From NCBI RefSeq assembly GCF_003474435.1, contig NZ_QRNF01000011.1:29203-93202 (forward strand): 64,000 nt of DNA. The letters run 5' to 3'. Below the pieces are notes generated by a model. The model saw only the letters and a list, made by a program, of their open reading frames with translations, was not told the DNA's origin and made no database searches. Position numbers and translations under genes: made by a program. The stretch is from Ruminococcus sp. AF46-10NS (GTDB taxonomy: Bacteria > Bacillota > Clostridia > Lachnospirales > Lachnospiraceae). Positions 10,563 to 26,850 of the stretch are shown here, one piece after another; within the stretch, counting starts at the first letter, position 1, and the number at the start of each line of letters is the position of its first letter.

Positions 10563-11462
10563 ATGAACTTAAATCAGCTCACATATTTTGTGACTCTTGC
10601 CCAGATCGAAAATTATACCAGAGCAGCCAAGAGGCTGGATATTACGCAGCCAAGTCTGAGTCATGCGATTTCCAACCTTGAAAAGGAGCTTAAGGTTCCC
10701 CTTTTTGAGCGTCACGGAAGAAATGTGACCATGACCAAATACGGGGAAATGTTTCTGAAATATGTGCAGGACTCCTTACATATCCTGAATCTTGGGGTGG
10801 AGAGAATACAGGAAGCGGCAAGAATTCCGGGAGGAAGTATTTCCATCGGGTACATCCATACCCAGGGACGCCGGTTTATCCCGGAGCTTGTCCGCGGGTT
10901 TCTGAATGAGCAGGAAGGAAAAAAGGTTGATTTCCATTTCCAGAATGCAGCTACAGGAACACTGATCCGGGGGCTGAAGGAGGAAAAGTTTGATGTGATT
11001 TTCTGTTCCCGTGCTGAAGGAGAAAAAGAAATCAGCTTTGTGCCGGTAGCGGAAGAAAAGCTGGTGGCTGTAGTGCCGGAGAACCATGCCCTGGCAGGCA
11101 GAAATACAGTGACAATAGAAGAATTGGGACAATATCCACAGGTGACTTTTACTCCTACCAGCGGATTGTATTTTGTGGTACGGGAGCTTTTTGAAAAAGA
11201 GGGGATCGTACCGGAAACTGTTTTTGAAGTGGAAGAGGATGGTGCACTTGCAGGAATGGTGGCAGAAGGTTTTGGTGTGGGAATCGTGCCGGATGTGCCG
11301 GTGATCCATACCTTGCCTGTGGAGATCCTGAATATTGAGAATCTTCATTATCGCCGTTACATATATATGGGAATGCTGAAAAACAGGTATCAGGGATCTC
11401 TTGTGGAGCAGTTCAGGGATTATATCTTCAGGCATTACCGGATCTATGAAGTGCTACAGTAG
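10563..11462 (+). CDS. LysR family transcriptional regulator
   Basis: A 299-residue LysR regulator. The winged helix occupies residues 1-60 (NLNQLTYFVTLAQIENYTRAAKRL, then TQPSLSHAISNLEKEL), followed by a linker helix and a substrate-binding domain. It is clearly paralogous to the LysR gene at 12673 (shared ITQPSLSHAIS, GRNV, TKYG). Two such regulators bracket the chorismate mutase-shikimate kinase gene at the edge of the hydroaromatic cluster, so a hydroaromatic effector is plausible but inferred. A terminator follows directly. Confidence 0.92.
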   Translation: MNLNQLTYFVTLAQIENYTRAAKRLDITQPSLSHAISNLEKELKVPLFERHGRNVTMTKYGEMFLKYVQDSLHILNLGVERIQEAARIPGGSISIGYIHTQGRRFIPELVRGFLNEQEGKKVDFHFQNAATGTLIRGLKEEKFDVIFCSRAEGEKEISFVPVAEEKLVAVVPENHALAGRNTVTIEELGQYPQVTFTPTSGLYFVVRELFEKEGIVPETVFEVEEDGALAGMVAEGFGVGIVPDVPVIHTLPVEILNIENLHYRRYIYMGMLKNRYQGSLVEQFRDYIFRHYRIYEVLQ

Positions 11463-11488
11463 AATCTCTGTGAAAAAATTCTCATGAA

Positions 11489-11524
11489 AAATCTCTGCTT
11501 CTGTAATGAGGTGGAGATTTTTTT
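11489..11524 (+). terminator. Intrinsic terminator after LysR gene
   Basis: AAATCTC pairs with GAGATTT over an 18-base loop, running straight into a T tract (11518-11524). It sits 27 bases after the LysR stop codon. Confidence 0.65.
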
Positions 11525-11710
11525 GAACACAGATCCAGGAGTGATTACTAAAAACCATAAAAATAATCTATAGATCACATGTATAAATTCAATGAAAGTT
11601 TAGGTTGAGATAAAAATGGCCAGTTGGTATAATAAGAACAGACACTTAGTTTAAAGTGATAAAGCGATGACGGAAATCCGTGATAAAATGAACGAAGTAA
11701 AGGAGACATT

Positions 11711-12499
11711 ATGAACCAGTTAGAAGTATTAAGAGAGAGCCTTGGACAGTGCGATGAGATCATCCTGGATGCACTGCTTATGAGAAACAGAATCGTTGAG
11801 GACATCATGGTATACAAGGAAGCTCATGATCTTCCTGTACTGCAGCCGGAGCAGGAGGCGAAGCAGAAGGGATGGCTGGAAGCCAGAATGGAAGGCAGAC
11901 GCCACAAGAAAGAAGTAAACGATGTTTTTGCAAGCATCACACAGAACAGTAAGAGAATCCAGTCCAGAAATCTCTTTAATTACAACATTTTCCTTATCGG
12001 ATTCATGGGCGCAGGTAAATCTACAATTTCTGACTACCTGAAGAATGCACTGGCCATGGATGTAGTTGAGATGGATCAGTGTATCGTGGAGAGACAGGGA
12101 ATGAGCATTTCCGATATCTTTGAGACTTACGGAGAAGAGTATTTCCGTGAGCTTGAGACCAACCTTCTCATTGAGATGCAGTCCAGATCTAATGTTGTAG
12201 TATCCTGTGGCGGTGGTGTCCCGATGCGGGAGCGCAATGTTGCTGAGATGAAAAAAAATGGCCGTGTCGTACTCCTTACTGCAAAGCCGGAAACTATTCT
12301 GGAACGTGTAAAGGATAATCATGACCGTCCGTTACTTGAGAACAACAAAAATGTTTCATTTATCGCTGACCTGTTGGAGAAGCGTCGTGCGAAATACGAG
12401 GCAGCAGCAGACATCGTGATCCAGACAGACGGAAAGAGTGAACTTGAGATCTGTGAGGAGCTGATCCACAGACTTCGTGAGACAGATGCGAATAAATAA
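11711..12499 (+). CDS. aroK: Chorismate mutase-shikimate kinase bifunctional protein
   Basis: A 262-residue fusion. Residues 1-75 resemble an AroQ-type chorismate mutase (all helical, LGQCDEIILDALLMRNRIVEDIMVYKE, then PEQEAKQKGWLEARM). Residues 93-262 are shikimate kinase: Walker A GFMGAGKST near 98-106, the shikimate-binding D in VEMDQCI, FRELE, and CGGGVPMRE. Shikimate kinase makes shikimate 3-phosphate; chorismate mutase makes prephenate. The fusion stands without other biosynthetic aro genes but next to a shikimate/quinate cluster, suggesting it could divert imported shikimate into aromatic amino acid synthesis. That use is inferred. The site AAAGGAGAC precedes the ATG. Confidence 0.88.
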   Translation: MNQLEVLRESLGQCDEIILDALLMRNRIVEDIMVYKEAHDLPVLQPEQEAKQKGWLEARMEGRRHKKEVNDVFASITQNSKRIQSRNLFNYNIFLIGFMGAGKSTISDYLKNALAMDVVEMDQCIVERQGMSISDIFETYGEEYFRELETNLLIEMQSRSNVVVSCGGGVPMRERNVAEMKKNGRVVLLTAKPETILERVKDNHDRPLLENNKNVSFIADLLEKRRAKYEAAADIVIQTDGKSELEICEELIHRLRETDANK

Positions 12500-12535
12500 T
12501 CGCTGATCATAAAGCAGAATATTTTTTACATATAA

Positions 12536-12597
12536 AAAAGGACAGATGTCCGATAAACCGTACAGAGATAAGGCGGGAATCAGGCAGTTGTCCTTTT
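12536..12597. terminator. Putative terminator with long loop, between convergent genes
   Basis: AAAAGGACA pairs with TGTCCTTTT across a 44-base interval. It lies between the aroK-type gene and the convergent LysR gene and could serve both directions. The long loop makes this less certain than the other terminators. Confidence 0.45.
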
Positions 12598-12672
12598 ATT
12601 ATCGAATACAAATCGTAAATATCCATTTGATAATGAAACTTTCGGACAGCAGATGACTGATCTGCCGTCCGC

Positions 12673-13581
12673 TTAATTGGTCTTATAAAAGATTTCTTTT
12701 GAGGTAGTCTCGATCACAAACTTCTTAAACGATTCCACAACCGGCGGATGATAAACATCTTTCAGCATGGCCATATAAAAATTTCTCTGCCAGCTTGGTG
12801 AAACAAGAGGCAGGATCTTAAGATCCAGAGAATGAAGGATAGGGATATCCGGGGCAATGCAGATGCCGAAGTCATTGGCAACAAACCCTGCGGCAACCTG
12901 ATCCTCATCAATCTCAAAAGCAACATCCGGGTACTGGCCGATGCTCTTAAACAGCTGGTCAATGATCTGGCGCAGGCCGCTTCGCTTCTTGAAGATGATC
13001 TGCCTGTATGGAAGCGTTTCCTCCAGATGTATCTCGGATTTCTCAGCAAGAGGATGTTCCGGTGGAACGATGACGACCAGATCCTGCTTGGCAACCGGAA
13101 TAAATTCGATCAGCGGTTCGTCGTCAAATTTGGAACAGAAGCCGATATCGTATTTTTTCTCTTTCAGTCCGGTGAGGATATCACCGGTAAGCACCTTATC
13201 ACAGAACAGATTGAAATTGATCTTTTTTTCTTTGTTGGCATTAAGAAAGCTACGGATGATCTTCGGCATAAAGTCAACACCCAGAGTTCTGAGAAAAGCC
13301 ACATCGATCTGTCCTTCTCCCTTTCCTGCAAGCTGGAGACCGTTTACAGAGGAATCCAGCCGGTTCAGGGTTTGTTCCACATCCTCCAGAAAAGACTTGC
13401 CATATTTGGTGAGAGAAACATTCCGTCCGTTTTTTTCAAATAATTTCACTCCAAGCTCTTCCTCCAGAGAAGAGATCGCGTGACTTAGGCTGGGCTGTGT
13501 GATGGCCAGAACATCCGCAGCTTTTGTATAATGTTCCAGATGAGCCAGTGTCACGAAATAGCGAAGATGATACAGATTCAT
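12673..13581 (-). CDS. LysR family transcriptional regulator, divergent from the hydroaromatic operon
   Basis: A 302-residue LysR regulator with an N-terminal winged helix (NLYHLRYFVTLAHLEHYTKAADVL, ITQPSLSHAISSLEEEL) and a periplasmic-binding-like effector domain. It is transcribed away from the operon that starts at 13868, the standard arrangement for a LysR protein controlling its neighbour. It is similar throughout to the LysR at 10563, so the pair probably arose by duplication. The effector is likely a hydroaromatic compound such as quinate, shikimate or a dehydro derivative; this rests on context only. An AGGAG site precedes the ATG. Confidence 0.92.
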   Translation of the reverse strand: MNLYHLRYFVTLAHLEHYTKAADVLAITQPSLSHAISSLEEELGVKLFEKNGRNVSLTKYGKSFLEDVEQTLNRLDSSVNGLQLAGKGEGQIDVAFLRTLGVDFMPKIIRSFLNANKEKKINFNLFCDKVLTGDILTGLKEKKYDIGFCSKFDDEPLIEFIPVAKQDLVVIVPPEHPLAEKSEIHLEETLPYRQIIFKKRSGLRQIIDQLFKSIGQYPDVAFEIDEDQVAAGFVANDFGICIAPDIPILHSLDLKILPLVSPSWQRNFYMAMLKDVYHPPVVESFKKFVIETTSKEIFYKTN

Positions 13582-13765
13582 TTTTCAATACTCCTTTCGT
13601 AAGTTTATCTGAATGTTTTGCTTCGGACAGATCCCCGGTAAGTCGGACAGACATAAGAGATTTGCCGGGCCGTATGCAGTGACGGCGGCAATACGGCTGA
13701 ATATGTTTTATATAGTATAACATGATATATTGATAAAATCTATGAATTCTCCTGGTACAATCAAT

Positions 13766-13794
13766 TTGTTTTGTATTTAACAAAGTTATATAAT
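13766..13794 (+). promoter_or_regulatory. Sigma-A promoter of the hydroaromatic operon
   Basis: TTGTTT (13766-13771), a 17-base spacer and TATAAT (13789-13794), about 70 bases before the operon's first start codon. The spacer contains a partial dyad (TTTGTTTTG...TTTAACAAAG) resembling half of the perfect palindrome at 19092, so a shared regulator is possible. Confidence 0.65.
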
Positions 13795-13867
13795 GCTTAT
13801 AGAAAAAAGATACAAAATAATTTAAAAAAAACCAAAAAAATTATTTATATTTTCAGGAGGAATTACC

Positions 13868-14707
13868 ATGTCAAAAGAATTTCCAATTACAATCAGTTCC
13901 TGGACACTTGGGGATCAGTGCAAATTTGAGGACCGTGTAAAAGCTGCCAAAGAGGCTGGCTATGAGGGAATCGGCCTGAGAGCGGAAACCTACGTAGATG
14001 CCCTGAATGAGGGACTTTTCGATAAGGATATCCTGGCAATCCTGGATAAATATGACATGAAGGTAACAGAGGTTGAGTACATCGTGCAGTGGGCAGAGGA
14101 GCATCGTTCCTATGAGCAGAAATATAAAGAACAGCTCTGTTTCCATATGTGTGAATTATTTAACGTGAAACAGATTAACTGCGGACTGATGGAGAACTAT
14201 TCCGTAGAGTACACAGCACAGAAGCTTCGTGAGCTTTGCCACAGAGCAGGCAAATACATCATCGGTGTTGAGCCAATGCCATACAGCGGAATCCCGGATG
14301 TGAAAAAAGGATGGGCTGTTGTAAAAGCTGCTGACTGCGAGAATGCAAAGCTGATCCTTGATACATGGCACTGGGTAAGAGCAAACCAGCCGATCGAGCT
14401 TTCCGTACTTGAGGGAATCCCGGCAGACAAGATCGTATCCATCCAGATCAACGATGTATGGGAAAGACCATATGCAACAACGATCTTAAGAGATGAGTCC
14501 ATGCATGACCGTCTTGCTCCTGGAACAGGAATCGGAACAACTGTGCCGTTCGTAAAAATGATCAAAGAAAAAGGCATTAAGCCAAATGCCATCGGCGTAG
14601 AGGTTATCAGCGATGCAAACCTTGAAAAAGGTATCGAGTATGCTGCAAAACATACATATGAGAACACAAGGAAGGTACTGGAAGAGGCTTGGCCGGAAGT
14701 ACTGTAA
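13868..14707 (+). CDS. TIM-barrel sugar-phosphate isomerase/epimerase family protein (possible 3-dehydroshikimate dehydratase)
   Basis: A 279-residue protein of the xylose-isomerase-like TIM-barrel superfamily. Candidate metal ligands are the glutamate in GVEPMP, the aspartate and histidine in ILDTWHW, the QIND stretch, and the glutamate in IGVEVIS. The same superfamily contains 3-dehydroshikimate dehydratases of the AsbF/QuiC type. Given the adjacent quinate/shikimate dehydrogenases and AroD, a dehydratase making protocatechuate, or an isomerase of a hydroaromatic intermediate, is plausible but not proven. It is the first gene of the operon, with a perfect AGGAGG at 13855-13860. Confidence 0.8.
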   Translation: MSKEFPITISSWTLGDQCKFEDRVKAAKEAGYEGIGLRAETYVDALNEGLFDKDILAILDKYDMKVTEVEYIVQWAEEHRSYEQKYKEQLCFHMCELFNVKQINCGLMENYSVEYTAQKLRELCHRAGKYIIGVEPMPYSGIPDVKKGWAVVKAADCENAKLILDTWHWVRANQPIELSVLEGIPADKIVSIQINDVWERPYATTILRDESMHDRLAPGTGIGTTVPFVKMIKEKGIKPNAIGVEVISDANLEKGIEYAAKHTYENTRKVLEEAWPEVL

Positions 14708-14820
14708 TTAATATAAGAAATTAATATTTCAGACGAACCCCTGTTTCCGACGTCATACCGGTGACAGGGCGTTCCAGTGAGAGAAACAAAAAGATTGTTT
14801 CAGAGGAAAGGAGAACGCAT

Positions 14821-16747
14821 ATGAAATTCAATGCGATGTTTCAGCCGATCGAGATCGGTCCTATGACAGTAAAGAACCGTTTTGTTGTTCCTCCAATGGG
14901 AAATAACTTTGCAAACACAGACGGAACAATGAGTGAGCAGTCCGCTGCATATTACAGAGAAAGAGCAAAAGGCGGATTTGGTCTGATCACCATCGAGGCT
15001 ACTGTAGTTCACAAGGGAGCAAAGGGCGGCCCGCGTAAACCATGTCTTTATGACGACTCTACTATCGAGAGCTTCCGCAAGGTCATCGATGGATGTCATG
15101 CAGAAGGTGCAAAGGTGTCTATCCAGCTTCAGAATGCAGGTCCTGAAGGAAATGCAAAGAACGCAGGAGCACCGATCACAGCAGCAACCAGTATCCCGTC
15201 AGTGTGCGGCCGTGATATTCCGAAGCAGCTTACAACTGAGGAAGTTTACGAGCTGATCAAAGGCTACGGAGAAGCTGCAAGAAGAGCAATGGAAGCAGGA
15301 GCAGATGCTGTTGAGATCCATATGGCACACGGCTATCTGGTAAGTACCTTCCTCTCTCCAAGAACAAACAAGAGAGTTGATGAGTTTGGCGGATGCTTTG
15401 AGAACCGTATGCGTTTTTCCCGTCTGATCATCGAGGAGGGTTAAAAAAGCAACACAGGGAAAAATTGCAGTTCTTGCAAGAATCAACTGTGCGGACGAGG
15501 TCCCAGGTGGACTTGATGTTCACGACAGTGCAGCGATCGCAGCATATCTGGAAAGCTGTGGACTGGACGGGCTCCATGTATCCCGTGCTGTTCATATCAA
15601 GGATGAGTTTATGTGGGCACCGACCGTTATCCACGGTGGATTCTCCGCAGCAGAGGTTGAGGAGATCAAACGTGCGGTAAATATCCCGGTGATCACAGTT
15701 GGACGTTATACAGAGCCGCAGTTCGCAGAGCTGATGGTAAAAGAAGGAAGAGCAGACCTTGTAGCATTCGGACGTCAGAGCCTTGCAGATCCGGCTATGC
15801 CGAAGAAGGCACAGGAAGAGCGTCTTGAGGATATGACTCCTTGTATCGCCTGTCTTCAGGGCTGTGTTGCAAACATGTATGCAGGAAATCCGGTATGCTG
15901 TCTGACCAATCCGTTCCTGGGTCATGAGGCAGAGCCGCTTGAGAAAGCTGAAGAGCCGAAGAAGGTTATGGTTATCGGTGGCGGTGTTGCAGGACTTTCC
16001 GCCGCATTTATCGCAAAGGAGAGAGGCCATGAGGTAACACTTTATGAGGCAGGAGATGTTCTCGGCGGAAACATGAGACTTGCTGCATATCCGCCAGGAA
16101 AAGGTGATATCACAAACATGATCCGCAGCTACATCCATCGCTGCCAGAAGGATGGCGTTAAGATCGTGATGAACTGTGAGGTAACTCCGGAGCTTATCAA
16201 AGAAGAGAAGCCGGACAGTGTGATCATCGCAACCGGTTCAAAGACTTTGATCCTTCCAATCGAGGGAATCGATAATCCGGCTATCATCCACGGCTCAGAC
16301 CTTCTGGATGGCAAGAGAGCAGCAGGCAAAAAGGTTCTCGTTGTCGGCGGTGGAATGGTTGGATGCGAGACAGCTGCATTCTTAGGCGAGCAGGAGCATG
16401 ATGTAACTGTTATCGAGTTCCGTGATACCGTAGGTGCAGATGTGATCCACGAGCACAGAGTATATCTGATGAAGGATTTCGAGGATTACGGAATCAGGGA
16501 GATCACCGGAGCAAAGGTATGCAAGTTCTATGAAGACGGTGTAGAATACGAGACAGCTGACGGAGTACGTCACGAGTCAAGAGGATATGATTCTGTGATC
16601 CTTTCCATGGGATTCCGCAACTACAATCCTCTGGAGGAGAAGATCAAGGATCTTGTGCCTGAGACACATGTGATTGGAGATGCTATCCGTGCAAGACGTG
16701 CACTGGATGCAACAAAAGAGGCTTATGAGGTAGCTTCCAGGATCTGA
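14821..16747 (+). CDS. Old Yellow Enzyme-type NADH:flavin oxidoreductase with Fe-S and FAD domains (frameshifted near 15439)
   Basis: A protein of about 640 residues of the 2,4-dienoyl-CoA reductase/BaiCD-like family. The N-terminal FMN-binding TIM barrel includes EIHMAHGYLVSTFLSP and NKRVDEFGG; a 4Fe-4S site follows (CIACLQGCVANMYAGNPVCC); the C-terminus has two Rossmann motifs, VIGGGVAGLSA and VVGGGMVGCETA. The start at 14821 has AAAGGAG. The frame stops at 15444; removing one G from GGG at 15438-15440 restores VKKATQGKIAVLARINC and the full protein. Such enzymes reduce alkenes conjugated to a carbonyl; 3-dehydroshikimate is such an enone, a candidate substrate by context. Confidence 0.85.
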
Positions 16748-16891
16748 TCTGCCAATCGCTGATCGTATTGATACAAAAGAAAATAACTATCCGGTAAAAT
16801 GGACAGTATAAAAATTAAAAAGATGGCCCGACAGACATCGGAGAAAAATAATCCGGTGTCTGTCAGGGGGAAATGCAGGAGGTAAAAAGAA

Positions 16892-17773
16892 ATGGAACAG
16901 AGAATTAAAGGAACAACTGGTTTACTTGCACTGATCGGAAGCCCGGTAGGACATTCCGGATCACCGGCTATGTATAACTTCAGTTTCCAGTACCATAATC
17001 TGGATTATGCTTACATGGCATTCGATATCAAAGAGGATCAGGTTCCGGCAGCTCTTGATGCAATGCGTCTGTTCAAAATGAGAGGATGCAACGTAACCAT
17101 GCCTTGCAAAAACAAAGTAGCTCAGTGTGTAGACGAGCTTTCACCGGCAGCAAAGATCATCGGTGCTGTAAACACAATCGTAAATGAGGATGGAAAACTT
17201 GTTGGACATATCACAGATGGTATCGGATTTGTCCGCAACTTAAAAGAGCACGGTGTTGATGTAAAGGGTAAAAAGATGGTAGTCCTCGGAGCAGGTGGAG
17301 CAGCTACAGCCCTTACTGTACAGTGTGCCCTTGACGGAGCAGCATCTATCGCGATCTTTAATCCCAACGATCCATTCCTTGACAGAGCAAAAGGAACTGC
17401 TGAGAAGCTTGCAAAAGAAGTACCGGACTGCAAAGTAAACGTATATTGTCTTGATGATCAGGATAAACTGAGAGAAGAGATCGCAAATGCAGACATCCTT
17501 GCAAACGGAACACTTGCAGGAATGAAACCACACGATGACATCACACTGGTTGACAAATCCATGTTCCATAAGGATCTTGTTGTTGCTGATTGTGTATACA
17601 ATCCGGCAGAGACAAAGATGGTAAAAGAAGCAAAAGAAGCAGGCGTGAAGCTTGCTGTAGGTGGAAAAGGAATGCTTCTGTGGCAGGGAGCTGAGTCCTA
17701 TAAGCTGTATACAGGACTTGAGATGCCAACAGATGAGTATCAGAAATTCCAGTCTGAGAACGAAGGGAAATAA
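16892..17773 (+). CDS. Quinate/shikimate dehydrogenase, YdiB-like
   Basis: A 293-residue NAD(P)-dependent dehydrogenase of the AroE/YdiB family. The substrate site includes GSPVGHSGSPAMYN near residue 17, the catalytic lysine in NVTMPCKNK, and ITDGIGF. The Rossmann motif is VLGAGGAATA, followed by IFNPND in place of the NRT/NRR typical of NADP-specific AroE. The C-terminal MLLWQGAESYKLYTG closely resembles E. coli YdiB. Expected reaction: quinate to 3-dehydroquinate or shikimate to 3-dehydroshikimate. It follows the OYE gene after 144 bases containing a hairpin (16827-16866), and AGGAGG precedes the ATG. Confidence 0.9.
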   Translation: MEQRIKGTTGLLALIGSPVGHSGSPAMYNFSFQYHNLDYAYMAFDIKEDQVPAALDAMRLFKMRGCNVTMPCKNKVAQCVDELSPAAKIIGAVNTIVNEDGKLVGHITDGIGFVRNLKEHGVDVKGKKMVVLGAGGAATALTVQCALDGAASIAIFNPNDPFLDRAKGTAEKLAKEVPDCKVNVYCLDDQDKLREEIANADILANGTLAGMKPHDDITLVDKSMFHKDLVVADCVYNPAETKMVKEAKEAGVKLAVGGKGMLLWQGAESYKLYTGLEMPTDEYQKFQSENEGK

Positions 17774-17778
17774 GAAAA

Positions 17779-18978
17779 ATGAGCCAGACAGGTAAGAAAA
17801 ATTTAGTGATTACTTCTATCGCGCTGTATTTTACATACTTCATCCACGGAATCGGAGCTTCCATTATGGGCCAGTACAAGCCGGAGCTTGCGGCTCACTG
17901 GGGAGCAAAGACTTTAAGTGATGGAACCATGGATGTCAGCATGGTAGTATCTGTAATTGCCGCACTTGGACTTGGAAGACTGATCTCACTTCCGTTTTCC
18001 GGTCCCCTGTCCGACAAATTCGGACGCAGATTAAGCGGAATCATCGGCGTGATCTGTTATGCAGCATATTTTATGGGAATCGCATTTGCTCCGTCTATGG
18101 GAGTTGCCTACGCCTTTGCCATTGTAGGTGGTATCGCAAACTCCTTCCTGGACACCTGCGTAAGCCCGACATGTATGGAGATTTACGTAAATAATCCTTC
18201 TGTAGCGAACCTGTTTACAAAATTCTCCATGTGTATCAGCCAGTTCCTGCTTCCTTTCCTGATCGGATTTGTAGCAGCGGCTAATATGTCCTACAGAACC
18301 ATCTTTATTGTTGCAGGTGCTGCGATCTTTATCGATGGAATCCTGATCCTGTTCCTGCCATTCCCGGAGAGAAATGCGAAAGGTACAGTAAAGAAAGAAA
18401 AAACAAAATTAAAGATCACTCCTGCAGCTCTTGCAGCAATCCTCATCGGATTCACAAGCTCTTCCACATTTATGCTGTGGCTGAACTGCAACCAGGAGCT
18501 TGGAAAGCTTTATAACTTAAGTGATCCTTCCAAGATCCAGTCCTTCTATGCAGTAGGAACCTTTGCAGCAATCCTGTGTTCCTCTGTATTTATCAAAAAA
18601 GGACTGAAGGAAATCAATATCCTGATCATTTATCCGCTGATCTCTTTCATCATGCTGGGACTGTGCTACTTTATCCAGAATCCGACCATCTGCCTTGTCG
18701 GTGGATTTGTGATCGGTTTTGCAGGCGCAGGCGGTGTGCTTCAGCTGGCTGTTTCCACAACTGCTGAGTTCTTCCCGGAGAACAAGGGAACTGCAACATC
18801 CATGGTCATGATCGCATCCAGCGTTGCGAACTACACCATTCTGACACTGGCTGGCTACATTACAAAGACTGCCGGAACCAGTGCTCCGAGAATGATCCTG
18901 CTTCTCAATATGGCAGTGACATTCGTTGGAATCCTTCTTGCACTGTTCGTTAAGATGAACCGTGGAAAAGAAGCCTGA
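17779..18978 (+). CDS. Major facilitator transporter, YdiN-like (probable hydroaromatic acid carrier)
   Basis: A 399-residue 12-helix MFS carrier. The signature GPLSDKFGRR sits between helices 2 and 3, and a basic loop (TVKKEKTKLK) marks the middle. Stretches such as GLGRLIS, the GGIANSFLDT segment and GGVLQLAVSTTAEFFPENKG resemble E. coli YdiN, which lies beside ydiB and aroD. It starts 5 bases after the dehydrogenase gene, so the two are cotranscribed. Import of quinate or shikimate is the likely role; the exact substrate is inferred. Confidence 0.85.
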   Translation: MSQTGKKNLVITSIALYFTYFIHGIGASIMGQYKPELAAHWGAKTLSDGTMDVSMVVSVIAALGLGRLISLPFSGPLSDKFGRRLSGIIGVICYAAYFMGIAFAPSMGVAYAFAIVGGIANSFLDTCVSPTCMEIYVNNPSVANLFTKFSMCISQFLLPFLIGFVAAANMSYRTIFIVAGAAIFIDGILILFLPFPERNAKGTVKKEKTKLKITPAALAAILIGFTSSSTFMLWLNCNQELGKLYNLSDPSKIQSFYAVGTFAAILCSSVFIKKGLKEINILIIYPLISFIMLGLCYFIQNPTICLVGGFVIGFAGAGGVLQLAVSTTAEFFPENKGTATSMVMIASSVANYTILTLAGYITKTAGTSAPRMILLLNMAVTFVGILLALFVKMNRGKEA

Positions 18979-19036
18979 GAAGAAAAAATGTGAATAACTG
19001 TTCCGATTTGGATGAAAATGACTGAATCGGAGCAGG

Positions 19037-19078
19037 GCAAAGTTCCAATTCGGAAACAATTTCCGGATTGGACTTTGC
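19037..19078 (+). terminator. Strong hairpin after the YdiN-like gene
   Basis: GCAAAGTTCCAATTCGGAAA (19037-19056) pairs with its near-perfect complement ending at 19078 around a CAA loop. There is no long T run, so it may be a terminator or an mRNA 3' stabiliser ending the 13868-18978 operon. Confidence 0.55.
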
Positions 19079-19091
19079 TGTTACTGAAAAT

Positions 19092-19109
19092 GTTTGTTAA
19101 TTAACAAAC
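19092..19109. promoter_or_regulatory. Perfect 18-bp palindrome, probable operator
   Basis: GTTTGTTAATTAACAAAC is a perfect palindrome 59 bases before the NCS2-type permease start. Its right arm overlaps a possible -35 (TTAACA, 19101-19106) followed 18 bases later by TACTAT (19125-19130). A repressor or LysR-type site is likely. The related imperfect dyad in front of 13868 suggests a shared regulator. Confidence 0.6.
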
Positions 19110-19167
19110 TTCCAAAACAGAAGATACTATATATGTATTTGCAAAAAAATGACAAAGGAGAATCGTT

Positions 19168-20550
19168 ATGGCACGTGCAGCAAGACAGCGAAGAGAAAAC
19201 GAACTGCCCTACATTCCGTTTGGGCCATTTCAGATTCGTTTTCCGTTTATTCACTATAAAATAGAGTCCGTAGAGTTTATCCAGGGTCTGATCCTTGGAG
19301 TTACGGCACTGGCGGCTGTTCCGTATCTTGAACAGTATCTGGGACTGCCTTATGAGCTGGCATGGAGCTGTGTGATCATAGAGACCATGCTGTATATGCT
19401 ACACAGCTTACTTGGTGATCCGGTTGTACCGGGATGGATCACACCGACCCTTCCGCTGACTATCGTATTCCTGGAAGGTTTCCCTATGGGAAAAGAACGT
19501 ATCCAGGCAATGATCGCCCTGCAGATGCTGGTTGGTCTTGTGTTCATATTTATGGGCATCACCAAGCTTGCGGATAAATTCGTCCATGCAGTACCAAATT
19601 CCGTCAAGGGTGGTATCCTTCTTGCTGCGCCGGTGACGGTTATGGCAGGACAGCTGGGAGAGGGCGGCAACATGCACAAATATCCGCTGGCGATCGTTGC
19701 CGGTGTAGGTCTTCTGATCCTCATCAGCTTTTCAGATAAATATCAGGAGAAGAGAAAGAACAACAAATTTCTGGATCTTGTTGCCAGGTATGGAAACCTT
19801 TTCCCGTATCTGATCGCCATGGTGGTAGGTCTTCTTGTAGGAGAGCTGGATGCGCCTGGTTTGGAGCTGGGAACCTTTATCAAGATCCCGCAGTTCAAAG
19901 AGATCATCTCCCAGGTAAGTATCTTTGGTGTTGGAATCCCGCCGGTTTCCATGTTTGTCAAAGCGCTTCCGCTGGCACTTGTATGCTATGTTATCGCATT
20001 TGGTGATTTTGTTACCACAGAGACACTGGTTACAGAGGCACGCCAGTCCAGAAACGATGAATATATTGATTTCAATTCCAGCCGTTCCAATCTGGTCAGT
20101 GGTATCAGAAACCTGATTCTCTCCATCATTGCCCCGTTTCCGCCGCTTTCCGGTCCGTTATGGGTTGGAATGACAGTATCTGTTTCCATCCGTTACAAGG
20201 AGGGAAAGAAAGCTATGAAGTCTTTGATCGGTGGTATGGCGTCCTTCCGTATCGCAACGTTTTTAAGTGTGCTGATCATTCCGGTTGTAAGTTTCTTCCG
20301 TCCGATCTTTGGAGTCGGTTCATCCATTACTCTGATGTTCCAGGCATTTGTCTGCGCAAGGATCGGTATGGATTACTGTAAAACAGACCGTGACAAGATG
20401 ATCGCAGGTGTTATGGCAGCCGTACTTGCAACCCAGGGAACTGCATGGGCATCCGCATGGGCCCTGGCTGTAGGCTTCGGTCTGAATATCTTCCTTTCAA
20501 ACTGGAATCCGAGAAAGAAAGAGGAGAATGCGATCGAGGATAAAAATTGA
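19168..20550 (+). CDS. NCS2-like permease (solute carrier 23 type)
   Basis: A 460-residue membrane protein with about 12 helices and the general NCS2/SulP-like architecture (GDPVVPGWITPTLPLTIVFLEG early; FGDFVTTETLVTE in the middle). Most characterised NCS2 members carry purines or pyrimidines, but the diagnostic purine-site residues are not obvious here. Position between the YdiN-like carrier and convergent aroD/ydiB suggests a second hydroaromatic or aromatic acid transporter; this is inference. An AAAGGAG site precedes the ATG, and the gene has its own promoter region and a strong terminator. Confidence 0.7.
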   Translation: MARAARQRRENELPYIPFGPFQIRFPFIHYKIESVEFIQGLILGVTALAAVPYLEQYLGLPYELAWSCVIIETMLYMLHSLLGDPVVPGWITPTLPLTIVFLEGFPMGKERIQAMIALQMLVGLVFIFMGITKLADKFVHAVPNSVKGGILLAAPVTVMAGQLGEGGNMHKYPLAIVAGVGLLILISFSDKYQEKRKNNKFLDLVARYGNLFPYLIAMVVGLLVGELDAPGLELGTFIKIPQFKEIISQVSIFGVGIPPVSMFVKALPLALVCYVIAFGDFVTTETLVTEARQSRNDEYIDFNSSRSNLVSGIRNLILSIIAPFPPLSGPLWVGMTVSVSIRYKEGKKAMKSLIGGMASFRIATFLSVLIIPVVSFFRPIFGVGSSITLMFQAFVCARIGMDYCKTDRDKMIAGVMAAVLATQGTAWASAWALAVGFGLNIFLSNWNPRKKEENAIEDKN

Positions 20551-20578
20551 TCAGAGAAATAACAAAGATATAAAAAAG

Positions 20579-20623
20579 AAAAGGAAGAAGTGTGCTGGAT
20601 GGGTCAGCACACTTCTTCCTTTT
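20579..20623. terminator. Strong bidirectional terminator
   Basis: A 19-base arm (20579-20597, AAAAGGAAGAAGTGTGCTG) pairs perfectly with 20605-20623 around a 7-base loop. The right arm ends CCTTTT and the left arm begins AAAAGG, so it can stop transcription of the permease gene and of the convergent aroD transcript. Confidence 0.85.
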
Positions 20624-20785
20624 GGCATAAGATTTGTTGTTTTTAATTATTATTTTAATAGATTTGCTATTATGGGATTAAAATTGCAAAAATTTGTTAC
20701 ATCAATTGGGGTTAAAAATTGGTTTATAATTTACGTTCTGTTACAAAAAATCTACTGTAGATCCTTTCAATGGGAGGTCACAGGA

Positions 20786-21547
20786 TCACAGGCTTTTATG
20801 GATAATGTCAAGAACCCGTTCAAGCTCGTTGACATTGATTTGTCCCGGTGCGGAAGCTTTTGTAGCTGCACCGAAGGTAAGGGCGGAACCAAAAGTCTCG
20901 CCTGTAAGACGGCTGACAACACCTGTACCTGCCATGGACATGGTAATGATCGGGCGGTCGGCGAACTGCTCGGACATTTCCAGAGTAGCACTTAAGAGTG
21001 TAAGCACGTCCTGTTTGTTTCTTGGCATAACAGCCATTTTGGGGATATCTGCACCATAGTCCTGCATCATGCAGAGACGGCGCACGATCTCATCCTTCTC
21101 AGGAGTTGCGTCAAAATCATGGTTGGAAGCGATGACCTTTACGCCATAGCTGTGTGCTTCACGAATCATGCTTTTTACGATCTCCTCACCTGTGAAGGCT
21201 TCTACATCAATGAGATCTACATAGCCGCTTTTTGCGACAGCCATGTTGAGGGCTTTGTAATCTTCATTGGAGATTGCTTTTTCTCCGCCTTCCTTTGCTG
21301 TACGGAAGGTGAAGAGGATCGGAGTGTCCTTTAAAACGGTCTGGAGATCTTTTGCCACATCCAGAACCTTGTCTGTGTCAAAAACGTCCTCAAACCAGTC
21401 AACACGCCATTCCACAACGTCTACGGGGATCCTTGCGAAGGTCCCTGCCTCAAGGAGGATATCATCCTTTGTCTGTCCCACGATCGGGACACAGATCTTC
21501 GGTCTTCCCTCTCCGAGTGTGATATTTCTTACCTGAACTGTTTTCAT
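20786..21547 (-). CDS. aroD: Type I 3-dehydroquinate dehydratase
   Basis: A 253-residue class I dehydroquinase that converts 3-dehydroquinate to 3-dehydroshikimate through a Schiff base. The catalytic pair is visible: H143 in IASNHDFDATP and K170 in ADIPKMAVMP. EWRVDWFE near residue 46 and the C-terminal GSALTFGAATKASAPGQ are conserved substrate-site segments. It lies 37 bases downstream of the second YdiB-like gene on the same strand, the same pairing as ydiB-aroD in E. coli, which supports catabolic use of quinate. Confidence 0.95.
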   Translation of the reverse strand: MKTVQVRNITLGEGRPKICVPIVGQTKDDILLEAGTFARIPVDVVEWRVDWFEDVFDTDKVLDVAKDLQTVLKDTPILFTFRTAKEGGEKAISNEDYKALNMAVAKSGYVDLIDVEAFTGEEIVKSMIREAHSYGVKVIASNHDFDATPEKDEIVRRLCMMQDYGADIPKMAVMPRNKQDVLTLLSATLEMSEQFADRPIITMSMAGTGVVSRLTGETFGSALTFGAATKASAPGQINVNELERVLDIIHKSL

Positions 21548-21584
21548 AATGGTCCTTTCTGATACGACAGGAACAGATAGCAGT

Positions 21585-22463
21585 TTAGTCGTCGTATCTG
21601 ATGTTAAGAATCTCTTTCATATGTTCGATCGGCATCGGTTCGCCGGTCCACAGTTCAAATGCAGCGGAGCCCTGGAAAAGCATCATGCCAAGGCCGTTCA
21701 TTGTCTTGCAGCCAACTTCCTTTGCCATAGAACGCATAGCAGTTTCAAGAGGGGAGTAAGGCACGTCAACAACGATAAGCTCCGGGCGGAAGTAAGACTT
21801 GTCCGGAACAACGGACTGACCTTCCAGTGGTTTCATTCCAACACCTGTTGCATTTACGAAAATATAGCTGTCAGACATTTCTTTTTTCAGCTGGTCAAGA
21901 TCTGCCAGATCATAGAGAACAGCATGGCTTGAAGTTCTGGTGTTGATCTTTTCTACTGTAGATACTGCACGATCCCAGAATTCATCTTTGCGGTTGAAGA
22001 TCACGATCTCGCCTACACCGTCAAGTGCTGCCTGAATCTCGATAGCAGTTGCGGCACCACCTGCACCTACGATGGTCATTTTCTTTCCGATGGCGTCGAT
22101 GTTATTGTCCTTCAGTGCTGCCATAAATCCGATACCGTCTGTGATATGGCCTGTAAGAAGACCATGATCATTAACGATGGTGTTTACAGCACCGCACATT
22201 TCTGCAGCCGGTGAAAGCTCGTCAAGGTACTGGCCTACCAGAGTTTTGTTCGGCATGGAAACGTTGGAACCTCTCATTTTCAGAGTACGGATGGCTTTTA
22301 CAGCATCCTCGATCTCGTCTGCGCCAACCTCAAATGCAAGGTATGCATAATCATAGCCAAGCTTTGCGAAAGCCTCGTTCTGCATGGCAGGAGAGCTGGA
22401 GTGACGGATCGGATATGCCATAAGACCGATCAGTTCGGTATGTCCTGTGATTCTTTCTGACAT
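21585..22463 (-). CDS. ydiB: Quinate/shikimate dehydrogenase YdiB
   Basis: A 292-residue dehydrogenase. The start at 22463 (MSERITGHTEL) is preferred because a GAGGAG site lies 9 bases upstream; the upstream in-frame ATG overlaps that site. The substrate motifs are YPIRHSSSPAMQN, NVSMPNKTL with the catalytic lysine, and HITDGIGF. The Rossmann motif VGAGGAATAI is followed by IFNRKDEFWDRA, very close to E. coli YdiB, and the C-terminus reads MMLFQGSAAFELWTG. YdiB uses both quinate and shikimate with NAD or NADP. It is paralogous to the enzyme at 16892 and probably cotranscribed with aroD and the upstream reductase. Confidence 0.92.
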   Translation of the reverse strand: MSERITGHTELIGLMAYPIRHSSSPAMQNEAFAKLGYDYAYLAFEVGADEIEDAVKAIRTLKMRGSNVSMPNKTLVGQYLDELSPAAEMCGAVNTIVNDHGLLTGHITDGIGFMAALKDNNIDAIGKKMTIVGAGGAATAIEIQAALDGVGEIVIFNRKDEFWDRAVSTVEKINTRTSSHAVLYDLADLDQLKKEMSDSYIFVNATGVGMKPLEGQSVVPDKSYFRPELIVVDVPYSPLETAMRSMAKEVGCKTMNGLGMMLFQGSAAFELWTGEPMPIEHMKEILNIRYDD

Positions 22464-22685
22464 GGTAATAACTCCTCTCATTGGTAAAATCTGGATGAAG
22501 ATTTGTCTTTTTTAAACCTCCCGCCACATAGATCTGAAGAAGCTGCGGACATTCTCCGGACGGCTGCGGGGGAGGAAGACGTGGAAAAACTATGTTACGG
22601 ATCACCGGGTGAACTGTAACAGATTTATATACACTTTCCGGTAGAAGGTTTGAAATGTTCCCGGAAAGGGTATAGCGGAAAAATA

Positions 22686-24682
22686 TTAAAGGTATCCCTT
22701 CTGCTCAAGAATGGTAAGGATATTGCGTCCTTCCTGGGTACCGTCAATGATTCGTCTTGCTCTCTGGCTGTCGCCGATGTTCATGATCTCAACATCCTCA
22801 GAAGAAAATTCCTCTGTGAGGCTCTGGTAAAGCTGTCCCTGAGCTCTCATTCCGAGACATACGAAGCCGTACTCAAATGGAAGCTCATAAGGCTCACCTT
22901 CGCCCCTGACAAGGAAAGAAGAATCCTTAACCTCAAGGAGAGCAGTTTTTGTAAGCTGATGTACATTGTGTTTTTTCATCATGGTCTTTGTGTCATTTTT
23001 GCTTACCGGGTCAAGATCACGTCCGATCTGATCCATCATCTCAACGATAGAGATGTCTGCGTTTCTGTCAGCAAAGAATTCCACAACATCAAGACCTACA
23101 GCACCGCCGCCTACAACAGCAACCTTTTTGCCTTCCAGATCCTTCGGAAAATCATTAATGTGGCTGATCATACCAAGAATAGAATAAATATTATAGTCTT
23201 CATTGTCAATACGATCCTTCAGTCCTGCGATCGGAGGCAGAAGCGGAGCGGAGCCGGTGGAGATTACGATGATATTCGGATGGAATTTGCGGATGTTTTC
23301 CGGTGTTCCTTCTGTGTTTTTAAAGATGTAAAGGTTATCAAGCTGTTCTGCACGATGCATGAGATAGTGCGGGAAATCAGCCAGACGGTTCTTTGCAGGG
23401 ATCTTTGAGATCAGAGATGCAAGTCCGCCAAGCTCATTGCCTTTTTCCAGAAGGAAGGTATTGCAGCCAACCTCTGCGGCTGTACAGGCAGCTTCCAGTC
23501 CGGCAGTACCGCCGCCGATAACAACCACGTTACAGTTTTTATTTACATGTTTTTTCTTATATACATCGCCCTCAAGAACAGATGGGTTTACAGTACAGCG
23601 GATCGGACGGTTTACACCGATACGGTTTCCGGCACAGCCAACATTACAGGAGATACATTTGCGGAGGTCACACTCATGACCTGTGGCAACCTTGTTTACC
23701 CATGCAGGGTCTGCGATCAGACCGCGGCCCATACCGATCAGGTCTGCGTCACCGTCAGCCAGGATACGCTCAGCAACCTCGGGTCACGGACATTACCCAT
23801 GGAGATACATGGTTTGTTGAATTTTTCTCTTACAGCCTTTGCCATATAGGAACGCCAGCCGTCCGGGAGATAATTTGCATCGATCTGGTACTGGATGGAA
23901 CCGTTAAGTCCACAGGAAACATCGAAGATATCAACCTCTTCCTGAAGGTAATCCAGGTATTCCAGAGTATCCTCCAGTGTATTTCCGCCCTCCATCAGCT
24001 CATCTGCACTGAGACGGAGCATGATCGGGAAGAAAGGTCCTACCTGTTTTCTTACCTCATCAATGACCATGCGGCAGAAACGGGTACGGTTCTCAACAGA
24101 TCCGCCGAATTCATCTGTACGCTTGTTTGTGATCGGGGACAGGAACTGACTGATCAGATAGGAGTGTCCTGCATGGATCTCTACTGCGTCAAAGCCGGCT
24201 GTCTGTGCACGCTTTGCAGCCTCGCCGTATTTCTTTACGATGTGAAGGATCTCTTCTTTGGAAAGAGGACGCGGGATCTCGCCGCCTTCTTTGGATGGAA
24301 CGTCAGATGCGGAAACCGGCTGCATGTTAATTCTGGAAGAAATTGCAGAAGCACCTGCATGGTTGATCTGGATCGCGATCTTTGTTCCATATCTGTGGAT
24401 ATTCTCACAGAATTTGAAAAGACGTGGCAGATAGTTGTCATGATCGATGCGAAGCTGGGTAGTTCCGTTGGAGCCCTGCGGGGAATCGATGCTTGCGTTC
24501 TCTACGATGATGAGACCTGTGCCACCCTTTGCACGCTGCTCATAATAATTGATATGAAGAAAACTCATTTCGCCGTTCTGTTCACCGTAGTTGGTGCCCA
24601 TCGGCATCATAACAATACGGTTCTTGATAGTCATATTTTTAACGGTTAATGGGGAAAAAATATGCGGATAATCATTCTTCAT
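22686..24682 (-). CDS. Second OYE-type NADH:flavin oxidoreductase with Fe-S and FAD domains (frameshifted near 23782)
   Basis: A protein of about 665 residues with the same architecture as the one at 14821. The FMN barrel contains EIHAGHSYLISQFLSP and NKRTDEFGGS; the Fe-S site is CISCNVGCAGNRIGVNRPIRC; the C-terminus has VIGGGTAGLEA and VVGGGAVGLDV. The two halves are separated by a one-base loss near 23782: restoring it gives GNVRDP followed by EVAERILADGDADLIGMGRG, a family-typical join. It heads the minus-strand group with ydiB and aroD. A likely role is NADH-dependent reduction of an enone from quinate/shikimate breakdown; the substrate is unproven. Confidence 0.85.
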
Positions 24683-24859
24683 CTGGAAAAACCTCCCTGG
24701 TTATTTTAAATAGAATCGTTTGCTTGTGTTAATTATATAACAGAATAAACTATAAAACTAATTCATAATACAAGCGATACAATAAAAATAATCTATAAAT
24801 TATCTTTCAGGCTGCAGATACTTGCATACTTATAATGTGAAAAAAACAGATGTAGAAAG

Positions 24860-25046
24860 CTAACTGGTTACTGAGAACGAAGTGAACAGTAAGTTACTAT
24901 TCACTGGTAATATTCCGCGAGGTGTTTTTTGTGAGCGAAGGTCACAGAAAACCCGAGACATACCGCGCGAATTTATGCGATTAGCATAAATTCTGTGCAT
25001 CGCGAAGCGTGTTGCTGAGAACGGAGTGAACAGTAACGCTAACTGG
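24860..25046. repeat. Composite intergenic repeat region
   Basis: The 519-base gap between the reductase and the Nudix gene contains no gene but dense repeats. GCTAACTGG occurs at both edges (about 24859 and 25037). GAGAACGAAGTGAACAGTAA and GAGAACGGAGTGAACAGTAA are near-identical direct repeats. Between them is a dyad TTATGCGATTAGCATAAATT with a following TCGCGAAGCGTG; a diverged copy of this block encodes the tail of SfsA at 2092-2155. It resembles a REP/BIME-like family. Confidence 0.6.
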
Positions 25047-26023: not shown

Positions 26024-26389
26024 ATGGCGGATGAACATAGAGATCAGATCAGAATCGTACAGGAGACCGTAGCCGGTAAGGAGATCACATTTGCTCATAT
26101 CATGGGTGGTCCGGCACCTATCATATATCAGAAGCTTGGACTGAATCCGCAGGTGGATTATGGATCATCTGCAATTGGTATCATGAACATGACACCTTCC
26201 GAGTCTGCTGTGATCGCATCCGATATTGCTGTGAAGAGCGGTAATGTGTATCTTGGATTTGCAGACCGTTTTACAGGAACACTGATCATAACAGGAGAGA
26301 TTTCCGATGTGCAGACTGCAATGGAGGAGATCGTGGATTATTTCCGTGATACGCTTGGATATGTAGTCTGCAAGATTACCAAGAGATAA
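26024..26389 (+). CDS. eutS: EutS/PduU-like bacterial microcompartment shell protein
   Basis: A 121-residue BMC-domain protein with the circularly permuted layout of EutS/PduU. Conserved stretches match E. coli EutS in order: RIVQETVAGKEITFAHI, AIGIMNMTPSESAVIASDIAVKS, and VYLGFADRFTGTLIITG. EutS hexamers tile the facets of catabolic microcompartments. No other compartment enzyme or BMC-H/BMC-P gene lies in the window, so the cargo is encoded elsewhere or the gene has another use. GAGGAA precedes the ATG, and the next shell gene follows after 11 bases. Confidence 0.85.
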   Translation: MADEHRDQIRIVQETVAGKEITFAHIMGGPAPIIYQKLGLNPQVDYGSSAIGIMNMTPSESAVIASDIAVKSGNVYLGFADRFTGTLIITGEISDVQTAMEEIVDYFRDTLGYVVCKITKR

Positions 26390-26400
26390 GGAAGTGTATC

Positions 26401-26799: not shown

Positions 26800-26850
26800 A
26801 ATTCAATGTCTGTAAGATCCACAGAAGCTAGAGCAGGACGGGATAAAAAA

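What the first reader, a model, noticed from the sequence alone, without database searches (positions are those of the whole stretch)
10563..24682. Candidate reductive quinate/shikimate utilisation system
Seen: two YdiB-type dehydrogenases, type I AroD with both catalytic residues, a YdiN-like carrier, an NCS2-like permease, a TIM-barrel protein of the superfamily that includes 3-dehydroshikimate dehydratases, two paralogous LysR regulators, and two OYE/Fe-S/FAD reductases in two facing operons. Known: E. coli ydiN-ydiB-aroD handle quinate to 3-dehydroshikimate; OYE-type enzymes reduce alkenes conjugated to carbonyls. Inference: 3-dehydroshikimate, an enone, is hydrogenated by one or both reductases, letting an anaerobe use hydroaromatics as electron sink or carbon source without ring-cleaving oxygenases.
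Basis: partly seen in the sequence, partly recalled or inferred. Interest (0 to 1): 0.85.

Follow-up and report, generated by a model that had tools for sequence, protein, structure and literature searches.

The report
Gut shikimate-use cluster with two reductases
This gut bacterium carries a regulated gene set for taking up and converting plant shikimate and quinate, and comparison across many genomes shows that two flavin reductases of unknown substrate are fixed parts of it, which makes the old question of how gut microbes reduce these compounds testable.

Summary
The cluster is real (window 10563-24682) and lies in a Blautia-like genome. It is of the Listeria qui1/qui2 kind: the best solved relatives of the TIM barrel and LysR_B are Lmo2234 and Lmo0488.

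Both reductases belong to it. In 298 Lachnospiraceae genomes the TIM barrel and OYE1 occur in the same 11, side by side or one gene apart. OYE2 lies near shikimate genes at 25 of 29 loci; control OYE homologues at 0 of 32. They are two separate lineages whose active-site and Fe-S motifs are kept in nearly all homologues. Gene nesting (OYE2 in 10 of 11 TIM genomes, 17 of 287 others) suggests reduction, dehydration, reduction of 3-dehydroshikimate, ending in a dihydroxycyclohexanecarboxylate; it recalls the paired enzymes BaiCD and BaiH of bile-acid dehydroxylation. That chemistry is inference.

Against a purely catabolic reading: in three relatives this AroD is the only dehydroquinate dehydratase found, so it probably also serves biosynthesis. 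No conserved ring-cleavage gene was recognised.

The parts
10563..11462 (+). LysR_A, LysR-type regulator, 44% identical to LysR_B; its relatives flank OYE2 modules elsewhere
   Evidence: PF03466/PF00126; paralogy; neighbourhoods
11565..11576 (+). candidate operator AATCTATRRATY upstream of the shikimate kinase gene
   Evidence: one of 3 matches in 64 kb, 0.31 expected; motif chosen after seeing the three sites
   Evidence: PF01817 + PF01202; beside OYE2 in several other genera
12673..13581 (-). LysR_B, divergent from the TIM gene; best solved relative Lmo0488 (5ted)
   Evidence: E 4e-42; a LysR of this group within 10.5 kb of the TIM gene at 74 of 80 TIM loci
13737..13748 (+). candidate operator between LysR_B and the TIM gene
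   Evidence: full match within 300 bases upstream of 23 of 87 distinct TIM genes against 1 of 272 distinct starts of OYE1, AroE1, AroE2, AroD and permease genes; those upstream stretches are mostly less AT-rich and partly coding, so the control is not matched
13868..14707 (+). TIM-barrel protein of the Lmo2234 family, probably a dehydratase, with a QuiC1-like metal site (E135, D165, Q193; E245 by family conservation only)
14821..16747 (+). OYE1, FMN/4Fe-4S/FAD ene-reductase; frame broken near 15440 in this assembly
   Evidence: PF00724 + PF07992; intact 641 aa in L001; motifs in 67 of 67 distinct homologues
16892..17773 (+). AroE1, YdiB-like shikimate/quinate dehydrogenase
   Evidence: PF08501; best PDB 3tnl, then YdiB 1vi2/1npd; Lys73 and Asp109 kept
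17779..18978 (+). MFS carrier
   Evidence: PF07690
19168..20550 (+). PurT-type (NCS2/NAT-like) permease
   Evidence: family profile finds 7tak PurT, E 2.4e-106
20786..21547 (-). AroD, type I 3-dehydroquinate dehydratase; its counterpart is the only one found in three relatives
   Evidence: PF01487; genome searches
21585..22481 (-). AroE2, second YdiB-like dehydrogenase, 48% identical to AroE1
   Evidence: PF08501; Lys79 and Asp115 kept
22686..24682 (-). OYE2, second FMN/4Fe-4S/FAD ene-reductase; frame broken near 23780 in this assembly
   Evidence: PF00724 + PF07992; intact 665 aa in L001; single-base difference
24790..24801 (+). candidate operator upstream of OYE2
   Evidence: a perfect palindrome in two close relatives; full match at only 2 of 48 distinct OYE2 genes

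Best explanation
The cluster is a shikimate/quinate-responsive regulon of two joined modules. Module B (OYE2; AroE2-AroD; CM-SK alongside) brings imported quinate and shikimate, and the cell's own dehydroquinate, to 3-dehydroshikimate, hands part of it to aromatic biosynthesis, and reduces the ring C=C of the rest with NADH through OYE2. Module A (TIM-OYE1-AroE1-carriers) extends this: the TIM barrel eliminates the 5-hydroxyl, which is beta to the ketone; OYE1 reduces the new enone; and an AroE-type dehydrogenase reduces the ketone, giving 3,4-dihydroxycyclohexanecarboxylate. Net: quinate + 4[H] -> product + 2 H2O, so two NADH are reoxidised per ring. Shown: gene content, conservation, linkage of both reductases, active-site motifs, metal-site type, a candidate operator. 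Inferred: all substrates, the order of steps, the product, induction by shikimate or quinate, and the physiological role.
For: TIM and OYE1 (56% identity or more; next hit 41%) occur in the same 11 of 298 Lachnospiraceae genomes (p 3e-20); adjacent in 10, AroE between in 1. In 393 genomes of the class, OYE1 hits of 69-100% identity (4) sit with TIM and the next three (43-49%) do not. Among 80 TIM loci: AroE 77, any reductase 76, OYE1 66. OYE2 near shikimate genes at 25 of 29 loci, control OYEs 0 of 32. OYE2 in 10 of 11 TIM genomes against 17 of 287 others. OYE1 and OYE2 are separate clades divided by control OYEs. HxxHxY and four Cys in 67 of 67 distinct OYE1; 45 and 47 of 48 OYE2. In the 11 Streptococcus/Gemella/Eremococcus loci, which lack OYE1, 9 carry a flavin reductase of another build: full OYE + FMN_bind + FAD_binding_2 length in 4 (domains scanned in 2), cut by the locus end in 4, without the OYE part in 1. 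QuiC1-like metal site.
Against: No activity, metabolite or induction data. Homologous Listeria operons are reported to make protocatechuate (recalled), so TIM may act on dehydroshikimate directly. G103 has TIM-OYE1 without OYE2; L080 has TIM with no recognised partner, and L069 and L071 have TIM with AroE but no recognised reductase. Four OYE2 loci show no shikimate gene. AroD is the only dehydroquinate dehydratase found in three relatives. In the replacement enzyme the fumarate-reductase catalytic residues (Fcc3 R402, H504, R544; recalled) are not conserved. The operator motif was chosen after the fact; with one mismatch allowed the window shows no excess (8 found, 9.2 expected). The genome counts are not corrected for relatedness.
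Confidence: 0.45

Rival explanations
1. Listeria-type protocatechuate route: the TIM barrel is a dehydroshikimate dehydratase that aromatises 3-dehydroshikimate, and protocatechuate is excreted; the OYEs reoxidise the NADH made by quinate/shikimate oxidation with some other acceptor.
For: TIM is 57% identical to Lmo2234 over the structure with a QuiC1-like metal site. [quoted passage not shown] that QuiC2 is Lmo2234 is my inference.
Against: A lone dehydratase would need no ene-reductase, yet TIM and OYE1 never part in 298 Lachnospiraceae genomes and OYE2 tracks them. Seventeen genomes hold OYE2 without TIM.
Confidence: 0.27
2. Chlorogenate route: the cluster handles the quinate half of caffeoylquinate and the OYEs are hydroxycinnamate (2-enoate) reductases for the caffeate half.
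For: Clostridial 2-enoate reductases are OYE/Fe-S/FAD enzymes (recalled). Alpha/beta hydrolases lie beside some loci; the two scanned match BD-FAE and Abhydrolase_3. Lactobacillus HcrB reduces hydroxycinnamates (PMC10295242, passages).
Against: The two hydrolase families reached 4 and 3 of the TIM loci; families in fewer than three loci were not listed, and none is seen inside the window's cluster. The HxxHxY motif is that of enone reductases (recalled). The tightest partners are AroE and the TIM barrel.
Confidence: 0.13
3. Scavenging for biosynthesis: import of shikimate/quinate to feed shikimate kinase and save PEP and erythrose 4-phosphate; the reductases have an unrelated or protective role.
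For: CM-SK in the cluster; the only AroD found is here; the only two shikimate dehydrogenase N-domains of G086 are here. Genes that read as chorismate synthase and prephenate enzymes (by eye) and a DAHP synthase sit near some loci.
Against: DHQ synthase and chorismate synthase lie elsewhere, so de novo synthesis looks possible, and further shikimate kinase hits exist. It does not explain two reductases and the TIM barrel.
Confidence: 0.12

Closest known systems
Listeria monocytogenes qui1/qui2 operons with QuiR (Lmo0488), Lmo2234 and their shikimate dehydrogenases
   Same: Best solved relatives of LysR_B (5ted, Lmo0488) and the TIM barrel (2g0w, Lmo2234); AroE1's best is 3tnl, recalled as Listeria. 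Recalled: the operons also hold 'NADH oxidase' genes (lmo0489, lmo2235).
   Different: Here the modules are joined with CM-SK and a PurT-type permease. The reported Listeria product is protocatechuate (recalled). No Listeria genome was fetched, so gene order there was not compared.
E. coli ydiN-ydiB-aroD
   Same: YdiB-like dehydrogenases, type I AroD and an MFS carrier.
   Different: No reductase, TIM barrel or shikimate kinase in the E. coli group as recalled; E. coli was not searched for this. The dehydrogenases fall under the YdiB equivalog cut-off.
BaiCD/BaiH of bile-acid 7-alpha-dehydroxylation
   Same: Same OYE/4Fe-4S/FAD architecture; two paralogues work around a hydroxyl elimination, as summarised in PMC11574389 (passages).
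   Different: There the first BaiCD step is an oxidation and both reductions follow the elimination; I propose a reduction on each side of it. Scores of 539 and 475 bits fall far below the BaiCD equivalog cut-off of 825.
QuiC1/AsbF dehydroshikimate dehydratases
   Different: 17% identity to QuiC1; the NCBIfam QuiC score of 22 is far under its cut-off of 1200.
Hydroaromatic reduction by lactobacilli (Whiting and Coggins; Carr et al., both recalled) and by gut flora (Brewster et al. 1978)
   Same: Reduction of quinate/shikimate to saturated rings. PMC7558350 (passage) says Brewster et al. showed gut microflora turn shikimate into cyclohexanecarboxylate.
   Different: No genes named in the passage seen; the link to this cluster is my inference. 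The original papers are not held.

Membership tests
Listeria qui1/qui2 kind | QuiR-like LysR regulator | tested here: met
   LysR_B best PDB hit is Lmo0488 5ted, E 4e-42; shikimate binding itself not tested
Listeria qui1/qui2 kind | Lmo2234-type TIM barrel | tested here: met
Listeria qui1/qui2 kind | shikimate dehydrogenase and type I dehydroquinate dehydratase | tested here: met
Listeria qui1/qui2 kind | protocatechuate as product | not testable with these tools
   needs enzyme assay or culture
dehydroshikimate dehydratase (QuiC1 type) | E-D-Q-E metal site in a TIM barrel (recalled) | tested here: met
   E135, D165 and Q193 align to QuiC1 5hmq in a weak match, E 0.04; E245 lies outside that piece and rests on family conservation; all four motifs in 88 of 88 TIM homologues
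dehydroshikimate dehydratase (QuiC1 type) | NCBIfam QuiC equivalog cut-off (635-position model) | tested here: not met
   22 bits against 1200
OYE/4Fe-4S/FAD ene-reductase superfamily | FMN barrel, CxxCxxxC...C cluster, FAD domain, HxxHxY | tested here: met
   on intact relatives; frames broken in the window
BaiCD | equivalog cut-off of 825 bits | tested here: not met
   539 (OYE1) and 475 (OYE2) bits
E. coli YdiB quinate/shikimate dehydrogenase | NCBIfam PRK12749 cut-off of 349 bits | tested here: not met
   285 and 323 bits; AroE1 passes PRK12548 (488 against 432), AroE2 passes PRK00258.2-1 (501 against 431)
E. coli YdiN | orthology of the MFS carrier to YdiN | not tested
   only MFS_1 shown
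NADH:2-enoate reductase (replacement enzyme in Streptococcus-type loci) | OYE + FMN_bind + FAD_binding_2 architecture (recalled as that of such enzymes) | tested here: met
   L056 and L075 proteins
NADH:2-enoate reductase (replacement enzyme in Streptococcus-type loci) | fumarate-reductase catalytic Arg/His | tested here: not met
   aligned to Fcc3 chains, R402, H504 and R544 are replaced in the L056 protein (positions recalled)

The most novel reading that the evidence does not exclude
The cluster encodes a 'reduce, dehydrate, reduce' route on a hydroaromatic ring, related in logic to bile-acid dehydroxylation: OYE2 saturates 3-dehydroshikimate, the TIM dehydratase removes the 5-hydroxyl, and OYE1 saturates the new enone. 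It is thus a genetic basis for the microbial dehydroxylation of shikimate and quinate by gut flora, an electron sink of two NADH per ring that could feed the cyclohexanecarboxylate-to-hippurate axis after further steps encoded elsewhere.
Probability: 0.27. Interest if true: 0.82.

Novelty: new variant of a known kind. Interest (0 to 1): 0.62.

Why it matters
Shikimate and quinate are common in plant food (recalled), and PMC7558350 (passage) says the gut flora of rats turn shikimate into cyclohexanecarboxylate, which the host makes aromatic and conjugates with glycine. That passage names no gene, and the listings shown by my ten literature searches (open-access papers only, top rows only) held no paper that I recognised as linking a gene cluster to it. 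This cluster, in Blautia and other gut anaerobes, names six enzymes to test. If the reductases act on 3-dehydroshikimate or its derivatives, they would be a new electron sink in the gut and would give a function to the 'NADH oxidase' genes of the Listeria operons (recalled).

Tried and rejected
Rejected: programmed frameshifting or decay of the reductases. The window carries 38 indels over 57.6 kb aligned to the nearest genome, none a multiple of three, and relatives are intact. Rejected: duplication of one reductase inside the cluster. OYE1 and OYE2 are 33% identical and lie in two clades divided by control OYEs (quick method; rows were picked by identity, so the unity of each clade is partly built in, their separation is not). 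Replaced: the first K-motif count used a poor pattern; the alignment stands instead. Some loci came in twice from the same contig (such as L001 and L008), so the operator and motif counts were repeated on distinct genes; the Fisher value for the operator used the uncorrected counts and is not quoted. Led nowhere: Listeria papers gave no regulon information of use; cider and dihydrocaffeate reviews (passages) gave only that shikimic and quinic acids are turned into simple phenols in cider; an inverted-repeat search for operators. Alignment A2 held one row of a single codon by my slip; it was not used for a model or search. My greedy gene caller picked antisense frames in some GC-rich loci, so presence was recounted by tblastn. 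Plain Foldseek was not run; absence of a fold means nothing. The permease model was not collected. Lactobacillales were not sampled as genomes; only the named loci cover them.


Full report
What is there. The cluster is 96-98% identical by alignment block to the nearest held genome, whose contig length equals that of a contig titled Blautia schinkii MSK.6.26. Blautia luti and B. massiliensis contigs carry TIM proteins 99 and 98% identical.

Both reductase frames are broken in the window. Each has a single-base length difference against the relative, near 15440 and near 23780. The aligned 57.6 kb hold 38 indels, none a multiple of three and 36 of 1-2 bases; I did not sort them into genic and intergenic. 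Assembly error is likeliest. Intact copies exist in the relatives and were used for the tests.

Are the reductases part of it? In 298 Lachnospiraceae genomes (280 genera) TIM occurs in 11 and an OYE1 orthologue (56% identity or more; next hit 41%) in the same 11; Fisher p 3e-20, not corrected for relatedness. The genes are adjacent in 10, with AroE between them in one. In 393 genomes of the same class, OYE1 hits at E 1e-160 or better fell in seven: the four of 69-100% identity (G001, G518, G550, and a broken copy in G434) sit with TIM, and the three of 43-49% do not. In 80 TIM loci of named records (the best 80 of 120; some contigs short) the counts within 10.5 kb are AroE 77, any reductase 76, LysR 74, transporter 69, OYE1 66, OYE2 28, AroD 27, CM-SK 26.

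OYE2 forms its own module: OYE2, LysR_A-type regulator(s), AroE2-MFS-AroD, often with CM-SK. At 29 OYE2 loci a shikimate gene (AroE, AroD, CM-SK or TIM) lies within 10 kb at 25; the four misses are L089, L093, L095 and L110. Of 32 control OYE homologues on 26 loci from the same family, chosen from the next-best hits and not all of them, none has one (p 3e-13). OYE2 orthologues occur in 26 genomes, plus a fragmented copy in G005. They are in 10 of 11 TIM genomes (G005 counted) and in 17 of the other 287 (p 7e-11). G103 has TIM and OYE1 without OYE2. On a quick tree of 84 proteins OYE1 and OYE2 are two clades separated by control OYEs.

Active sites. HxxHxY (the carbonyl-binding His pair and proton-donor Tyr of class III OYEs, recalled) and the four cluster Cys are present in 67 of 67 distinct OYE1. 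In OYE2 they are present in 45 and 47 of 48. The best solved full-length relative of OYE1 is NCR, 6qkg (recalled as 2-naphthoyl-CoA reductase), then 2,4-dienoyl-CoA reductase. Both OYEs fall well below the BaiCD cut-off.

A natural replacement. Fourteen TIM loci lack OYE1. Eleven of these, all in Streptococcus, Gemella or Eremococcus, have a short-chain dehydrogenase gene, after TIM in those inspected. Nine of the 11 match the 968-residue OYE + FMN_bind + FAD_binding_2 protein of L056: four at full length (domains scanned in L056 and L075), four cut by the end of the locus, and L072 without the OYE part. L069 and L071 have no recognised reductase. Of the other three, L034 has OYE2 and a dehydrogenase gene after AroE1, L021 is near a contig end, and L080 (Acidaminococcus) has no recognised partner. 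The FAD domain is closest to fumarate and urocanate reductases, but Fcc3 R402, H504 and R544 are not conserved, so it is probably not a fumarate reductase. It does show flavin reductases of another build in this setting.

Regulation. AATCTATRRATY occurs three times in the window, upstream of CM-SK, TIM and OYE2 (0.31 expected). I picked it from those sites, and with one mismatch allowed in its first 11 letters there is no excess (8 found, 9.2 expected), so the window count is not an independent test. In related loci a full match stands within 300 bases upstream of 23 of 87 distinct TIM genes, against 1 of 272 distinct starts of OYE1, AroE1, AroE2, AroD and permease genes. Those control stretches have mean GC 0.37-0.44 against 0.35 for TIM, so they are not fully matched. 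For CM-SK (3 of 24) and OYE2 (2 of 48) the full matches are in close relatives only. A common operator for the three promoters is therefore a suggestion; for the TIM promoter it is better supported.

Link to biosynthesis. In three relatives the AroD of this cluster is the only type I dehydroquinate dehydratase found, and no type II was found. G086 has two shikimate dehydrogenase N-domains, both in the cluster; the other two genomes have a third elsewhere. DHQ synthase and chorismate synthase lie elsewhere. So module B probably also serves aromatic biosynthesis.

Mechanism proposed. A dehydroshikimate dehydratase removes the 5-hydroxyl, beta to the C3 ketone (recalled chemistry). If OYE2 first saturates the ring C=C, the same elimination gives a second enone, OYE1 saturates it, and an AroE-type enzyme reduces the ketone: 3,4-dihydroxycyclohexanecarboxylate, the product I recall for lactobacilli (Whiting and Coggins). 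Redox balance: quinate + 4[H] -> C7H12O4 + 2 H2O. The order fits the nesting: OYE2 occurs without TIM, and in the 298 genomes TIM never without OYE1 and once without OYE2. The logic resembles BaiCD and BaiH, which work around a hydroxyl elimination (PMC11574389, passages), but there the first step is an oxidation. All of this is inference. Against it stand the recalled protocatechuate product in Listeria and the possibility that the reductases act on hydroxycinnamates.

Verdict. Ordinary: the dehydrogenases, AroD, carriers and regulators are members of a known kind. New here: a quantitative case for the linkage of two independent ene-reductase lineages, their nested occurrence with the TIM barrel, and a specific testable pathway.

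Noticed in passing
window 26024-27381: Two bacterial microcompartment (PF00936) shell proteins followed by a PduV/EutP GTPase (PF10662), next to the cluster.
   Followed up: no
whole window: 38 indels against the nearest genome over 57.6 kb, none a multiple of three: many broken frames here are probably assembly errors.
   Followed up: partly
window 24893-25028: 136 bases upstream of OYE2 not aligned to the nearest genome, near 22-base direct repeats (95% alike), with a partial copy (87%) at 2082-2135; perhaps a small repeat element.
   Followed up: partly
window 42487-43638: ORF that reads like an IS200/IS605-type TnpB protein (by eye).
   Followed up: no
L094, L097, L100, L148: OYE2 next to AroD and an MFS gene without AroE2 within the stretch: a third arrangement of the module.
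   Followed up: no
G005:C37:1872259-1874252 (L153): OYE2 split in two pieces with an internal stop beside a CM-SK gene; the genome has further broken pieces of a copy on C40.
   Followed up: no
L015, L016, L018, L020, L023, L047, L052, L054, L061: A TRAP-transporter large-subunit (DctM-type) family lies beside these TIM loci, a possible hydroaromatic importer (representative identified).
   Followed up: no
L034:5883-6179: A 98-residue ORF sits between TIM and AroE1 where OYE1 is usual; it reads like a small ABM-type monooxygenase (by eye).
   Followed up: no
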